The position numbers and the translations under genes were made by a program. 64,000 nucleotides of DNA from Synechococcales cyanobacterium CNB (GTDB taxonomy: Bacteria > Planctomycetota > Phycisphaerae > Phycisphaerales > UBA1924), in contig SZOZ01000006.1 in the NCBI GenBank assembly GCA_030263455.1, positions 1 to 64,000 on the forward strand, written 5' to 3'. Positions 1 to 4,647 of the stretch are shown piece by piece; position 1 is the first letter of the stretch, and each line of letters begins with the position of its first letter. The notes below the pieces were generated by a model. The model made no database searches. It was not told the origin of the DNA and saw nothing but the letters and a program-made list of their open reading frames with translations.

Positions 1-68
1 CGAAGGACAACTCGGACCCCCGCGCAGGAACCGCACGCGACCAGACCGAACGCAGAGGCCGCGGAGCG

Positions 69-120
69 GAACGCGGAGAGCGCGGAATGGAACGCGGAGA
101 GCGCGGAATGGAACGCGGAG
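69..120. repeat. Short tandem repeat, 21-bp unit
   Basis: A 21-base unit starting GAACGCGGAGAGC occurs twice without change (69-89 and 90-110), followed by a partial third copy to 120. Degenerate GCGGAG-rich sequence continues on both sides from about 50 to 175. Open frames through it are simple-sequence products (Arg/Gly/Glu-rich) and I do not regard them as genes. Confidence 0.8.
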
Positions 121-317
121 CGGATCGAACGCGGAGGACGCGGAGCAGCACGCGGAGTTCGCGGAGCGAACAGTGCGGGGAGAACGGATCAGAAGGTCCA
201 GAACACCCGATCCCCTCCTCCCCCGCACCCCTTCCCTTCCCGCGCGCCCTCCTCACCCGCAAACGCTCCCTTCCCGCGCGTCCTCCTCCCCCTCGCTCCG
301 CGGGGGAGGTCGTGGCC

Positions 318-430
318 GGGTCTTCGCGTCTGGCCTTCGCGGCCGGGTCTTCGCGTCTGGGTCTTCGCGTCTGGGTCTTCGCGTCTGGGTCTTCGCGGCT
401 GGGTCTTCGCGGCTGGGTCTTCGCCGCCGG
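318..430. repeat. Tandem minisatellite, 15-bp unit
   Basis: About seven head-to-tail copies of a 15-base unit of the type GGGTCTTCGCGTCTG, with GTCT replaced by GGCT or GGCC in some copies. Because 15 is divisible by three, all frames stay open and create false ORFs. There are no unique spacers, so this is not a CRISPR array. The stretch 431-530 up to the tRNA-like gene shows nothing else I can recognise. Confidence 0.85.
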
Positions 431-530
431 GGGAGGTTCCCTTCAGCCCTTCGGCCCTCTGCGCAGTCTGGCCCCCTGGCGGCGTGTCCCGGCCAGCCGC
501 CAACCCCCGCCCGAAGGCCGCACAGCCCGA

Positions 531-602
531 TCCCCGGTCGCCCAATGGCAGAACGAGCGGCTGCTAACCGCCAGGTTCCCGGTTCGAGTCCAGGTCGGGG
601 AG
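531..602 (+). tRNA. tRNA-Asn-like gene with anticodon GCT; four A.C stem mismatches
   Basis: A 72-base cloverleaf with a 7-bp acceptor stem (531-537 with 595-601, one G.T), discriminator G602 and no encoded CCA. T8, A14, G18G19, A21, TTC at 54-56, A58 and C61 are all present. The anticodon loop is CTGCTAA (561-567), so the anticodon is GCT, formally serine. The 5-base variable loop, the U1-A72 pair and G73 fit tRNA-Asn, and tRNA-Ser would need a long variable arm. Stem mismatches are C541.A553 and C542.A552 (D stem), A556.C572 (anticodon stem) and C580.A592 (T stem), all of type A.C. Changing C to U at each, and at C564 of the anticodon, gives a perfect tRNA-Asn(GUU). A terminator follows at 609, but I see no -10 box upstream, unlike the other three tRNAs here. 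It could be a pseudogene or an edited tRNA. Confidence 0.65.
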
Positions 603-608
603 TTTTCG

Positions 609-637
609 ACGCCCTCGCGGAAACGCGGGGGCGTTTT
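609..637 (+). terminator. Intrinsic terminator after the tRNA-like gene
   Basis: An 11-bp stem (609-619 with 624-634, one G.T pair), loop GAAA and a T run at 634-637. It begins six bases after the tRNA discriminator base, the position expected for the 3' end of a monocistronic tRNA transcript. 638-829 shows no other feature. Confidence 0.75.
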
Positions 638-829
638 GGTTTACGGGGCGGCCCCGTCCAAGCCACCCGGCCGAACTCGCGAAAAATCGCTTTACGAAGG
701 GGGTTTCGGCGCTTCCCGGCCCGCCCGCCGCGCTCTCGGTCTTGAAACCGAATCTCGGGGTCCGACGGCAACCCCCACGGTTGCTCTCGCCCCACCGGCG
801 GCAACCCCTCTCAAACTCTCGCGCTCTCT

Positions 830-872
830 GGTTGACGGGTGGCTTGAGCTTAACAGCAGGGTTGCTCTCGGC
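830..872. repeat. Left copy of repeat blocks flanking the SIR2 gene
   Basis: Contains GGTTGACGG (830-838) and GGGTTGCTCTCGGC (859-872). Both blocks recur in the same order and orientation at 3094-3118, just beyond the start of the SIR2 gene. The second block lies inside the 3' end of the SIR2 reading frame. A partial further copy (GGTTGCTCTCG) is at about 779-789. Confidence 0.6.
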
Positions 873-3039
873 GGCCTTGTCCGGTTGGCGCAGGAACCGG
901 TGCCAAGAAGACGGGATAGATGCTCGCGTCCAGCGATCTTTCTATCAGGGTGTCGAGCCGTTCCCAGTCGCGCTCCGGGTAGAGTTGCCGCGTTAGCGCC
1001 GCAATCGCCGATGCGTCTTCATCGGAAGCGCCGGCCGGATCGTCGTGAACGCGCCGGAGCAGGCTCCGCATCGCTGCAACCGACGCCGGTTCCGCAGTTG
1101 TCATGGATTCAGAGATTCTGGCACTCGGACATCCCGCGGATCGCAGGGCCCGGAGCATGTCGAGTGCCATCTTCGGACCGAGGCTGGGGTCGGCGCTGCC
1201 GAGGGCACGATCGAGGGCGGCGGCCAGGATCCTCGCCGCGCGCTGGGGCTCCCCTTGGGCCAGCAGCGCCCATCCGCGGGTCCGGTCAGCGAGCGATGTC
1301 CCGTTCAGCCAGCCTGCGACGGAATAGAGCACCTGCCCCTCGCTCGCACGCTTGAGTGCGCCCTCTCCATTGCCTCGAACCAAAAGGGCTTGTCCGTGCA
1401 GGACGGACGTTGCTGCCACGTCGCGGACCTCCAGAAGCCCGGGCGCATCCTCGCTGACGAGGACCGACATCATGACGTCCTGCGTCTCGCCCAGCCGCTG
1501 GGCAAGACGCGCCGATACAGCCGCCAGGATTCGATGAAGACCGAGCCGATGCAGCAGGGGAGCCGTCTTGAAGCCTGCAGCTTGGACGACTTTGCACCAC
1601 AGGTGCAGTCGGTAGTGCTCGAAGAAGGCTCGCGTCGCGCGGGTAGCGAGCGTGCGCAGTCGCCTGCCCCGACGCAGGGTCCAGACTGCCTGCGGGACAG
1701 CGAGCACGCTGCCGGGCAGCGTCAAGGCGAAGGACTCGAACGCCCGGGCGATGAGCTCAACCTCCGTCCCCGGCCAGGCCCTCCGCACTCGCACCGCCTC
1801 AGCGGCTTGAGCGGAGCAGTCGTGCCCGTGACCAAACTGCTCCAGGTACAGCCGCACCACGGCCGGGGGGGGAGCGGAGTCTCCGAACACGAGCGGCCGC
1901 AGGACTGGGATCGCGTCGCTCCGACACGCCGAGTCGGTGATGCGTGCAACGAACTCGGCCAACGCGTCCGAGGAGAGGGATCGCAGCGCCTCGTCCACCC
2001 GCAGTTTCATTCTCGCATCCAACAAGCGTTCCGCCGATACGTACTCAGGTACATCTCTCTCGGCGGCATCAAGCCCGAGCCGATGGGCGAGATCGACGAG
2101 GATGTGCCGCGGACCCCGCTCATGGATCGGCCCAAAGAGGCTTGCGCTATGCACTGTCGGATTGAGCTCCGTGAGGAAACTCGCCCGCAGCACTTCTGGC
2201 CCGGAGAACGACGGATCGACCGGCCAGTAGGGCTCGTTCCAGAAGACCCGCCTTCGCTCACGCGCGCCGTCGCCGTTGAGCAACGCCGAGAAGAGCGGCC
2301 TGAGGTCGGGGTCACGGAACCCGTAACCCAGCACGACCCACAGGCTCGGTGGCGCGGGTACCCGAAGGAGTTGGAAGACCTGATCGAGCCGGCCAGCAAG
2401 GAACAGGGTCCGGGCAAGTTGATGAGTTGTGTACACGCACGATGCCGGCTCCGACACGCACCCGTGCAACTTGAGCAGTTGCACGAGTCCCCGCTGTCGT
2501 GCGTCAATCCATTGATGCAGTTGGCCACCCAGAGTCCGCGAGGGAGCGGGAACGGAAATCCCCGCGGCAATCTCTAGGCATCGATCGTAGTTCGTGGTCG
2601 CGAGCGTCACGGCCTCGCACCACTCGCGATCAACGAGCGCCTGCGCCACGGCAATCACCAGCCTATGAAGATGGTTGGGGCGCGAATCCACGCTCCCTCC
2701 GCAGGTCGCCCGCACGACTGCGGTGGCGGCATGAGGATTTGCCGCGTCCAGACATCCCATGAACTGCTCAAATGGGAGCTCGCTCACCGCCTTCTTCCAC
2801 TCCGGGTTGTCCAGGCAGGCCCTGACAGCGACGCGCAGCTCGGTTGAGGCGCCGCTGCATTCGGTCTGTTTGAGCACCGACGCGAGGACCAAGGCGTCTC
2901 GAATCTCGGGCACGCTCGCGCAATGGCACTCTGGGCTGCGTGAAACAAGCGAGCCAACAAGGAAGAGCAGGTGACGATGACGGCGGCCCTCGATCTCCGT
3001 CCAGAGCTCGTCCAAGCAGTCGGCGGTACCTGGCGACAT
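850..3039 (-). CDS. SIR2-like domain protein, candidate defence effector
   Basis: A 729-residue protein with a SIR2-like (SIR2_2/PF13289 type) N-terminal half. The motifs seen are LVGSLVS in place of the usual GAG loop, TTNYD, LKLHG and then LGYGFRDPDLRPLF, the order typical of SIR2-like NAD-binding or NADase domains in anti-phage proteins. The C-terminal ~400 residues are helical-looking, Leu/Ala/Arg-rich, and match no domain I can name; in such proteins this part is often a sensor. I chose the ATG at 3039 because GGGAG lies just upstream, rather than the longer frame from 3081. No membrane segments. It stands alone, with no TIR, Argonaute or HerA partner next to it. The defence role is inferred from domain and context; NAD cleavage is not shown. 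Confidence 0.75.
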   Translation of the reverse strand: MSPGTADCLDELWTEIEGRRHRHLLFLVGSLVSRSPECHCASVPEIRDALVLASVLKQTECSGASTELRVAVRACLDNPEWKKAVSELPFEQFMGCLDAANPHAATAVVRATCGGSVDSRPNHLHRLVIAVAQALVDREWCEAVTLATTNYDRCLEIAAGISVPAPSRTLGGQLHQWIDARQRGLVQLLKLHGCVSEPASCVYTTHQLARTLFLAGRLDQVFQLLRVPAPPSLWVVLGYGFRDPDLRPLFSALLNGDGARERRRVFWNEPYWPVDPSFSGPEVLRASFLTELNPTVHSASLFGPIHERGPRHILVDLAHRLGLDAAERDVPEYVSAERLLDARMKLRVDEALRSLSSDALAEFVARITDSACRSDAIPVLRPLVFGDSAPPPAVVRLYLEQFGHGHDCSAQAAEAVRVRRAWPGTEVELIARAFESFALTLPGSVLAVPQAVWTLRRGRRLRTLATRATRAFFEHYRLHLWCKVVQAAGFKTAPLLHRLGLHRILAAVSARLAQRLGETQDVMMSVLVSEDAPGLLEVRDVAATSVLHGQALLVRGNGEGALKRASEGQVLYSVAGWLNGTSLADRTRGWALLAQGEPQRAARILAAALDRALGSADPSLGPKMALDMLRALRSAGCPSARISESMTTAEPASVAAMRSLLRRVHDDPAGASDEDASAIAALTRQLYPERDWERLDTLIERSLDASIYPVFLAPVPAPTGQGRREQPCC

Positions 3040-3093
3040 GCTCCCATCATAATGCGGGTCCAGGGAGAGCGCCCTCCTCATCGAACCTCTTGT

Positions 3094-3118
3094 GGTTGAC
3101 GGCGGGGTTGCTCTCGGC
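3094..3118. repeat. Right copy of repeat blocks flanking the SIR2 gene
   Basis: GGTTGACGG (3094-3102) followed, after two bases, by GGGTTGCTCTCGGC (3105-3118). In the left copy the same blocks are 20 bases apart. The pair could mark ends of an inserted or recombined segment. Confidence 0.6.
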
Positions 3119-3246
3119 CCCTTGCGCGCGACTGCGGAATCCCATCGCGTAGGTATCCAGTAGCCAGCAGCGGCGTGCCGCAGGCGACCGATCCCGGATC
3201 ACCACGACCGGCCACGGACGAGTGAGCATCTCCGAAGGAGTGCGCG

Positions 3247-3462
3247 ATGTCGCTGCGCCCCGACCCGACGGACCCGGCGGACATGTCGCCCGACGAGCGG
3301 ATGGACGAGGTTGGCAGCATCCTCGCCCGCGGGATTCTGCGGCTGCATGGGCGAGTTCGCCCACATCTCGGCCCCGCCGACCCCCCTCAGAATCTGCCGG
3401 AATCCTCGCGGACATGCCTTGAACTCTCGGCCGGTCCTCGCCCTGATGGCGTCGCTGGTTAA
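3247..3462 (+). CDS. Small protein of DUF2924/recombinase mobile cassettes
   Basis: A 71-residue acidic protein whose first half reads [20 protein letters not shown] and whose end reads SSRTCLELS. This layout matches the short hypothetical proteins I know directly upstream of DUF2924 proteins and recombinases in planctomycete and alphaproteobacterial genomes; that is family memory and was not searched. GAAGGAG precedes the ATG at good spacing. The next gene, a DUF2924 start, follows after 25 bases with its own Shine-Dalgarno. It appears complete. Its function is unknown. Confidence 0.6.
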
Positions 3463-3487
3463 CGGCGAGAGAACAAGGAGGCGATGC

Positions 3488-3690
3488 GTGGCATTGAACG
3501 TCGGGCAGATGGTGAGCGAACCGCGGCGCATGACCGTGACCGAGCTGCGCAGCCGGTACACCGAGGTCTTCGGCGAGCAGACGCGGTCGGGCAATCGCGA
3601 TTACCTCGTGCGCCGGATCGCATGGCGCGCCCAGGCCAACGCCGAGGGCGGGCTCCCCGAGCGGGCGCGGGAGGGGGGGGTGTGGTTCCC
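3488..3690 (+). pseudogene. Truncated DUF2924 gene (mobile cassette remnant)
   Basis: A GTG start at 3488 with a strong AAGGAGG at 3475-3481 opens a frame with the DUF2924 N-terminal signature: [16 protein letters not shown], then [15 protein letters not shown] and a following LPERARE. Intact family members run to about 150 residues and are followed by a site-specific recombinase. Here the family-like sequence stops near 3680 and continues only as an open antisense frame over the NRDE gene, so the rest of the cassette has been lost. Confidence 0.6.
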
Positions 3691-4647
3691 ACGCCTCTCC
3701 GGCCTTGCGCGCAGAAACGAACGATGCCCACGGGCTCCGCTTCCACGGGTTGCGCTTCCCCGGGTTGCGAGCAGCCGCTGCCCGGCGTCGCGCCACCCGC
3801 GGCTACAGGCCCTCGCCCCTCCGGAGCGAAGAGGCCGTCCCCCCCACCCCCACTCCCCCCACTCCCCCCACTCTCCCCCCCACCACCACCGCCTCCGGCA
3901 CCGGGCGGTACGCCATCCGCACCCGCGCGGCCCGGCACGCGATGCGGATCGCGGCGCTGCGCGCGAAGCCGCGCGCGCCGCGGGCGTCACCTCCACCGCC
4001 GTCACGCTCACCGTGCGGGCCGCGTCGCGCGACATCAGCACGCTGATCTCCGGGCGGTGCGGCCAGCGGTGCGCGTGGAACGCGTCCTGCGCCTCCGGCG
4101 TCGGCCCGGGCGCGACGACCAACTCCTCGAACAGCGGCAGCCGCGGCAGCACGACCGCGTCACCCAGGCCCGAACTCGCGAAGCAGACCGCCGCCTGCCC
4201 GTGCGCGGTCAGGTGCAGCCGCTCGCCGTCCCAGACCGCGTCGAGCGAACGCGGCACGCCCCGCGCATCCGGCTGCACCGCGACGAGCCGGAACGGGTCG
4301 AACCGGGCGAGGTCGGCCGCGGCGAGCCGGTCCGCGGCCTCGTCGGCCGTCAGCGCATCGATGAGCGACGGGATGAGCAGGCCGCGCGAGCGCCGGCCCG
4401 CGCGCGGCGGCGCGGATTCCCCCCCCGGGGCGTTCACGTTCAGCAGCGCGAGCGCGAGGCCCGTCTCGGCGGCGGCGACCCACGTGCCCCCCGCGTGCGT
4501 GTCGGTCGGCCAGAGCGCTCGCACCGGCAGCGCCGGCGGACCTCGCCACTCGGGCGGGTCCGCGGCGGCGCGGCGGCGGCTCTCGTCCCGGTTCGTCACG
4601 AGCCGGAAGCCGGCGGAGGGCAGCGGGATGACGGAGACGGTGCACAC
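3601..4647 (-). CDS. NRDE family protein, probable C-terminal frameshift
   Basis: The N terminus has the NRDE (TANGO2-like) signature: [20 protein letters not shown] and GGTWVAA, then [11 protein letters not shown] start at the GTG at 4647 because the family begins with Met-Cys-Thr-Val. Family members are about 230-270 residues, while this frame gives 348 with an Arg/Trp/Gly-rich, unnatural tail. In the next frame the family-like ending [10 protein letters not shown] continues and stops at 3803. A one-base indel in the GC-rich stretch near 3960-4000 would therefore restore a normal protein ending at 3803 and remove the overlap with the DUF2924 remnant. Function is unknown. Ntn-hydrolase-like roles have been suggested for the family. 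Confidence 0.7.
3838..3892. repeat. Pure polypyrimidine tract
   Basis: An almost uninterrupted C-rich run with repeated CACTCCCCC units, free of G for over 50 bases. It lies within the 3' part of the NRDE reading frame, where it encodes Gly/Trp repeats. Such tracts are slippage-prone and may explain the suspected frameshift next to it. Confidence 0.75.

What the first reader, a model, noticed from the sequence alone, without database searches (positions are those of the whole stretch)
531..637. tRNA-Asn-like gene whose five defects would all be fixed by C-to-U changes
Seen: a complete cloverleaf with all invariant tRNA bases, followed six bases later by a terminator. It has anticodon GCT and exactly four stem mismatches (541.553, 542.552, 556.572, 580.592), every one A.C. 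Changing C to U repairs all four and turns GCT into GTT, matching the tRNA-Asn body (G73, U1-A72, short variable loop). The other three tRNAs in the window have no A.C mismatch. Known precedents are marsupial mitochondrial tRNA-Asp (C35 to U in the anticodon), plant organelle A.C repair, and C8-to-U8 editing by CDAT8 in Methanopyrus. Inference: either C-to-U tRNA editing in a bacterium, or a pseudogene changed only by transitions. No -10 box is visible upstream, which favours the pseudogene.
Basis: partly seen in the sequence, partly recalled or inferred. Interest (0 to 1): 0.8.

Follow-up and report, generated by a model that had tools for sequence, protein, structure and literature searches.

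The report
Decayed duplicate of the tRNA-Asn gene
A second, mutated copy of this bacterium's asparagine tRNA gene lies in a small gene island, cut off from the original's promoter; it is most likely an ordinary tRNA pseudogene, and its apparently 'editable' defects are what neutral mutations leave behind.

Summary
The cloverleaf at 531-602, its four A.C mismatches, the GCT anticodon and the terminator at 608-635 are really there. It is best read as a tRNA-Asn pseudogene; I found no support for C-to-U editing. The genome holds an intact tRNA-Asn(GTT) on another contig, a long-arm tRNA-Ser(GCT) and 42 other tRNA genes. The window copy is part of a 151-bp duplicated block (501-651, 89% identical to the intact locus). 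In that block the tRNA body has changed as fast as its flanks (8/72 against 8/79), while the intact body is 72/72 identical in both congeners examined. The promoter motif conserved upstream of the intact gene (-107 to -80) lies outside the block, which starts at -30. Three of the eight body changes (A7>G, A9>C, G24>A) cannot be restored by C-to-U. 'All mismatches are A.C' follows from transitions: a transition in a Watson-Crick pair gives either G.U, not counted as a mismatch, or A.C. The copy sits at the edge of a small island with a repeat, a SIR2-like gene and a DUF2924 remnant. A congener carries a more decayed copy sharing five of the eight changes. No THUMP domain was found. RNA data were not available.

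The parts
501..651 (+). duplicated block: 30 bp upstream, tRNA body and terminator of the tRNA-Asn locus
   Evidence: 89.4% identical over 151 bp to G000:C3:133486-133636
531..602 (+). tRNA-Asn pseudogene, anticodon GCT, 8 changes from the intact gene
   Evidence: ARAGORN and Rfam; alignment to the intact copy
608..635 (+). intrinsic-terminator-like hairpin inherited with the block
   Evidence: aligned with the intact locus
1..328 (.). GC-rich, repeat-like stretch at the contig end; inverted copy at the end of contig C3
   Evidence: 92.4% over 328 bp to C3:198414-198719, inverted
712..885 (.). repeat 'X', lying downstream of tRNA-Asn in three relatives and present in several copies in some genomes
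850..3081 (-). 743-aa ORF with SIR2_2 domain; island cargo
   Evidence: Pfam SIR2_2, E 1.7e-14
3524..3673 (+). remnant of a DUF2924 gene at the other edge of the island
   Evidence: Pfam DUF2924, E 1.1e-10, profile positions 8-57 of 135
3833..3923 (.). 91 bp repeated without difference, inverted, at C3:191583-191673, near the junction with conserved neighbour genes
   Evidence: synteny with G001:C35 starts at 3884

Best explanation
The feature is a dead duplicate of the genome's single intact tRNA-Asn(GTT) gene. A roughly 150-bp piece of that locus, reaching from 30 bp upstream to just past the terminator but not as far as the conserved promoter motif, came to lie at the edge of a small genomic island. 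Without that promoter it has gathered changes, mostly T-to-C, as fast as its non-coding flanks, including U35>C in the anticodon. It does no decoding: its anticodon no longer fits Asn, it lacks the long arm needed for Ser, and both codon sets are served by intact genes. Shown here: duplication, intact parent, absence of the parent's promoter motif, body changing as fast as flanks, island context. Inferred: no transcription, no function, and how the block moved.
For: The intact tRNA-Asn(GTT) is at G000:C3:133516-133587, 70.9 bits. The 45 tRNA matches include exactly one Asn(GTT) and, besides the window copy, one Ser(GCT) of 92 bases by ARAGORN. The body is 72/72 identical in G000-C3, G001 and G002, while the G000-C3/G001 flanks keep 22/30 and 36/49 positions; the window copy differs from C3 at 8/72 in the body and 8/79 in the flanks (Fisher p = 1.0). 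The motif TTGACCGATG-N12-TAGCCT lies at -107 in G000-C3, with the same 28 bases at -108 in G001 and -110 in G002; the window has no TTGAC in 1-530. TTGAC-N15-20-TAnnnT is found within 170 bases upstream of 24 of 30 tRNA-Asn genes examined, against a mean of 0.08 of 30 in base-shuffled upstream stretches. A tRNA-Asn-like stretch in congener G002 (C225:1619-1664), not called as a tRNA, whose match stops before the terminator, differs from the intact body at 20 of 70 aligned positions and shares 5 of the window copy's 8 changes. Other pieces of tRNA-Asn 3' ends occur in G016, G006, G048 and G051. A tRNA-Asn pattern with GCT gave 1 exact match in the genome collection and 0 in the viral one; that one is not called as a tRNA.
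Against: Fold and terminator hairpin are still well kept. The last 22 bases of the body (51-72) have no change, which could hint at use of the 3' end, but eight random changes would miss them 5% of the time. The flank yardstick is not even: the 30 bases upstream are nearly the same in G000-C3 and G002 (29/30 and one gap). No RNA data were available. A promoter not matching TTGAC...TA...T could exist (6 of the 30 tRNA-Asn genes lack the motif), and the sequence beyond contig position 1 is unknown. G040 has two tRNA-Asn genes called by ARAGORN, both GTT, so a second tRNA-Asn copy in this group need not be dead.
Confidence: 0.95

Rival explanations
1. A functional tRNA-Asn whose transcript is repaired by C-to-U editing at five sites.
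For: All four mismatches are A.C and the anticodon would become GUU. C-to-U editing of a tRNA is known in a bacterium (TrcP, V. cholerae tRNA-Tyr position 32; PMC9553926, passages seen), so it is not impossible in principle. Three matches to a cytidine-deaminase-type domain are in the genome.
Against: An intact tRNA-Asn is present. Only 5 of 8 changes would be reverted. The body has changed as fast as the flanks. The parent's promoter motif is missing. No THUMP domain found. With 8 changes at a 75% transition share, 15% of simulated copies having at least 3 broken pairs have only A.C. Three PF00383 matches need mean nothing: TadA and other housekeeping deaminases carry this domain (recalled); 12 of 14 control genomes have it.
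Confidence: 0.01
2. The copy serves, or served, as an attachment (att) site or recombination edge for the island: a mobile element used tRNA-Asn as target, and this copy is one junction.
For: It borders a cargo stretch with a SIR2_2 gene and a DUF2924 remnant that precedes genes which in G001 are not preceded by it. Relatives carry tRNA-Asn 3' ends with terminator at other places; in G016 one lies about 25.6 kb downstream of the intact gene on the same strand, and in G006 one is followed at once by sequence like the window's DUF2924 stretch. The G002 copy lies beside other genes yet shares 5 of 8 changes, as if the piece travels. Body positions 51-72 are unchanged.
Against: The block holds the whole tRNA plus 30 bp upstream, whereas a typical att remnant is a 3' part (recalled). 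None of the 9 PF00589 matches nor the 1 PF00239 match in the genome lies on contig C3 or C6. The intact gene on C3 is followed by what look like ordinary chromosomal genes.
Confidence: 0.2
3. A working tRNA with GCU anticodon that reads Ser AGC/AGU codons: a missense tRNA or an odd tRNA-Ser.
For: Anticodon GCT; ARAGORN names it Ser.
Against: Its short variable loop does not suit SerRS, and U35 is an AsnRS identity base (both recalled). A Ser(GCT) gene of 92 bases is present. Four broken stem pairs, no parental promoter motif.
Confidence: 0.01

Closest known systems
bacterial tRNA pseudogenes and duplicated tRNA pieces at genomic-island edges (recalled as a kind)
   Same: duplicate of a single-copy tRNA gene, separated from its promoter, decaying, beside island cargo
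   Different: the full body, 30 bp upstream and the terminator were copied, not only the 3' end
C-to-U tRNA editing: CDAT8 (Methanopyrus; start of abstract of PMC3695527), marsupial mitochondrial tRNA-Asp (recalled), TrcP in V. cholerae (PMC9553926, passages)
   Same: C where the parent has U, including anticodon position 35
   Different: there (recalled) the edited gene is the needed one; here an intact gene exists, 3 of 8 changes are not T>C, and no THUMP domain was found

Membership tests
tRNA pseudogene | intact parent gene elsewhere in the genome | tested here: met
   G000:C3:133516-133587, tRNA-Asn(gtt)
tRNA pseudogene | disabling changes in stems and/or anticodon | tested here: met
   four A.C mismatches and U35>C
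tRNA pseudogene | no purifying selection on the body | tested here: met
   8/72 body against 8/79 flank changes; parent body 0/72 changed between G000-C3, G001 and G002
tRNA pseudogene | parent's promoter missing | tested here: met
   motif at -107 to -80, block starts at -30. The generic sigma-70 scan finds nothing in window 1-1000 but also nothing around the intact gene, so it does not discriminate; that the motif is the promoter is inferred from conservation
tRNA pseudogene | no mature transcript | not testable with these tools
   no RNA data
C-to-U edited tRNA | the edited gene is the needed source of that tRNA | tested here: not met
   intact tRNA-Asn(GTT) present
C-to-U edited tRNA | C-to-U restores the ancestral sequence | tested here: not met
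   restores 5 of 8 positions
C-to-U edited tRNA (CDAT8 type) | THUMP-cytidine deaminase in the genome | tested here: not met
   PF02926: 0 matches at E <= 0.001, with 11 of 14 control genomes positive; the draft genome is 98.7% complete
C-to-U edited tRNA (TrcP type) | TrcP homologue in the genome | not tested
tRNA att-site remnant of an integrative element | integrase gene in the element | tested here: inconclusive
   no PF00589 or PF00239 match on C3 or C6; the contig starts inside the region

The most novel reading that the evidence does not exclude
The locus is transcribed from an unrecognised promoter and its transcript is edited C-to-U at five positions, making a second tRNA-Asn.
Probability: 0.01. 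Interest if true: 0.85.

Novelty: new member of a known kind. Interest (0 to 1): 0.12.

Why it matters
It matters little beyond annotation: the locus should be marked as a tRNA-Asn pseudogene, not as tRNA-Ser(GCT). It is a useful caution that 'all mismatches are A.C and fixable by C-to-U' is expected of a transition-rich tRNA pseudogene and is not by itself a sign of editing. A body-against-flank rate test with one intact paralogue and two congeners settles such cases quickly.

Tried and rejected
Editing was tested through the intact paralogue, the direction of changes, the rate of change, the promoter motif, and THUMP and deaminase domains and rejected. A large island filling the whole C3 stretch downstream of the intact gene (65 kb to the contig end) was considered: the translations listed include genes I recognise by eye as chromosomal (glmS-, typA-, UDP-glucose-dehydrogenase-like; no family search was run on them), and C3:133640-153000 and parts of 181001-193000 match congeners in blocks (153001-181000 was not compared). 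Recurrence of tRNA-Asn with GCT in other organisms: one exact match in an Eisenbacteria MAG, not called as a tRNA, and none in viral contigs.

Shared origin of the window copy and the G002 copy: they share 5 of the window's 8 changes; for T>C changes alone the overlap is 4 of 4 among 15 comparable T (hypergeometric p = 0.026). That suggests one ancestral pseudogene, but the G002 copy lies beside other genes, whose relatives are in G001:C5 and G000:C2, so it is not at the window's place and the point stays open.

The promoter/terminator scanner does not discriminate. It also finds no terminator-like site at the intact gene with its T-tail rule, a point that neither helps nor hurts. A first try to read mismatches from ARAGORN brackets was useless, because ARAGORN writes mismatches as dots; one search replaced it, and its acceptor-stem rows were dropped as register artefacts.

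Paper searches: (listings and starts of abstracts seen). Only PMC9553926 was opened, and only passages were seen. No claim that something is not in print is made.

Full report
What is there. The window is the first 64 kb of contig C6 of a 3.2-Mb draft genome of 17 contigs, 98.7% complete. At 531-602 ARAGORN finds a cloverleaf with anticodon GCT, which Rfam scores at 33.7 bits, just above its cut-off of 29. Four stem pairs are A.C and no other is broken, and a terminator-like hairpin follows at 608-635.

Where it comes from. The genome has 45 tRNA matches. Read with ARAGORN they are the window copy and 44 others, among them one tRNA-Asn(GTT) on contig C3 and one tRNA-Ser(GCT) of 92 bases. The window's 501-651 is 89.4% identical over 151 bp to the block C3:133486-133636 around the intact tRNA-Asn. 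So 30 bp upstream, the body and the terminator were copied together.

Why it looks dead. The intact body is identical at 72 of 72 positions in G000-C3, G001 and G002, the two congeners among the 61 genomes. The G000-C3/G001 flanks keep 22 of 30 upstream and 36 of 49 downstream positions; G000-C3/G002 keep 29 of 30 (one gap) and 23 of 49. So the upstream flank is itself well kept towards G002, while the other flanks are not. The window copy differs from the intact copy at 8 of 72 body positions and 8 of 79 flank positions (Fisher p = 1.0). The body is therefore as free to change as its flanks. In tRNA numbering (my conversion) the changes are A7>G, A9>C, U12>C, U20>C, G24>A, U35>C, U43>C and U51>C. 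C-to-U would revert five of the eight. The mismatch 541.553 arose by G24>A, so editing C11 would give U-A and not the ancestral C-G.

Promoter. In G000-C3 the sequence TTGACCGATGTGGAGGGTGTGCTAGCCT starts 107 bases before the tRNA; the same 28 bases start at -108 in G001 and -110 in G002. TTGAC-N15-20-TAnnnT lies within 170 bases upstream in 24 of 30 tRNA-Asn genes examined, against a mean of 0.08 of 30 in base shuffles; the 30 genes come from 30 of the 61 genomes, those whose DNA was fetched. That the motif is the promoter is inferred from conservation. The copied block starts 30 bases before the tRNA, so this motif was not copied, and no TTGAC occurs in window 1-530. A generic sigma-70 scan finds nothing around either gene and so does not help.

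Why all mismatches are A.C. A transition in a Watson-Crick pair yields either G.U, which is not counted as a mismatch, or A.C. Any A.C can formally be repaired by C-to-U. The pattern thus says only that the stem changes are transitions. Simulated copies with eight changes and at least three broken pairs show only A.C in 2%, 8%, 15%, 33% and 69% of cases at transition shares of 0.5, 0.67, 0.75, 0.85 and 0.95; the observed shares are 12 of 16 in the block and 7 of 8 in the body.

Surroundings. Downstream lie a repeat 'X' (about 712-885), a 743-aa ORF with a SIR2_2 domain, and a truncated DUF2924 remnant at 3524-3673. From 3884 on, the window is syntenic with G001:C35, and in the 12.2 kb of C35 held upstream of that junction nothing like window 1-3883 was found. 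In G001, G006 and G020 the intact tRNA-Asn itself is followed by X. In G001 the X-bearing ends of contigs C23 and C4 overlap by exactly 99 bases, and C4 continues to sequence like window 3095-3549. The end of C3 carries, inverted, copies of window 1-328 (92.4%), 3646-3755 (92.7%) and 3833-3923 (100% over 91 bp) around a C-5 cytosine methylase gene. I read this as two related cargo islands with a tRNA-Asn piece at the edge of one. How the block moved is inference. No PF00589 or PF00239 match lies on C3 or C6.

Relatives. G002 holds a tRNA-Asn-like stretch at C225:1619-1664, not called as a tRNA, whose match stops before the terminator. It differs from the intact body at 20 of 70 aligned positions and shares 5 of the window copy's 8 changes, but lies beside other genes. 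Tails of tRNA-Asn with terminator lie at extra places in G016 and G006, and 3'-half pieces in G048 and G051. Of eight further weak matches that I picked and fetched, two are other tRNA genes (Thr, Arg) and six hold no tRNA called by ARAGORN. Against a simple rule that second copies are dead, G040 has two tRNA-Asn(GTT) genes called by ARAGORN. A pattern for tRNA-Asn with GCT gave one exact match in the genome collection (an Eisenbacteria MAG, not called as a tRNA) and none in the viral collection; the tool warns that records of the window's own genome may be left out.

Editing machinery. No THUMP match was found (11 of 14 control genomes positive). Three PF00383 deaminase-domain matches are present (12 of 14 controls positive); I did not name these genes. 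C-to-U editing of a bacterial tRNA is known: TrcP converts C32 of V. cholerae tRNA-Tyr to pseudouridine through U (PMC9553926, passages). I did not search for TrcP here.

Verdict. This is most likely a tRNA-Asn pseudogene made by duplication without its promoter. It is ordinary, with a mildly interesting island context. The remaining gap is the absence of RNA data.

Noticed in passing
window 712-885; G046:C1:551625-560424 and C15:254211-262509: Repeat 'X', with internal GGTTGCTCTCG / GCAACC motifs, lies behind tRNA-Asn in G001, G006 and G020; 11 of 37 genomes searched have a match to the stretch 604-890, and G046 has six, kilobases apart. It may be a mobile or cassette-associated repeat.
   Followed up: partly
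window 1-328 and 3646-3923; G000:C3:191583-191778 and 198414-198719: The ends of two related cargo islands (SIR2_2 gene; C-5 cytosine methylase gene) are inverted copies of each other at the ends of contigs C6 and C3, suggesting an assembly break in an inverted repeat and that the contigs may be neighbours.
   Followed up: partly
G016:C3:115041-115100 (L091) and G006:C311:40006-40061 (L092): Short tRNA-Asn 3' ends with terminator at extra places; in G016 about 25.6 kb downstream of the intact gene on the same strand, as expected of an island inserted at tRNA-Asn.
   Followed up: partly
upstream of tRNA-Asn in relatives (e.g. L061 3910-3937): A TTGAC...TA...T motif at very variable distance (-39 to -141) from tRNA-Asn in genomes of the family and order.
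   Followed up: partly
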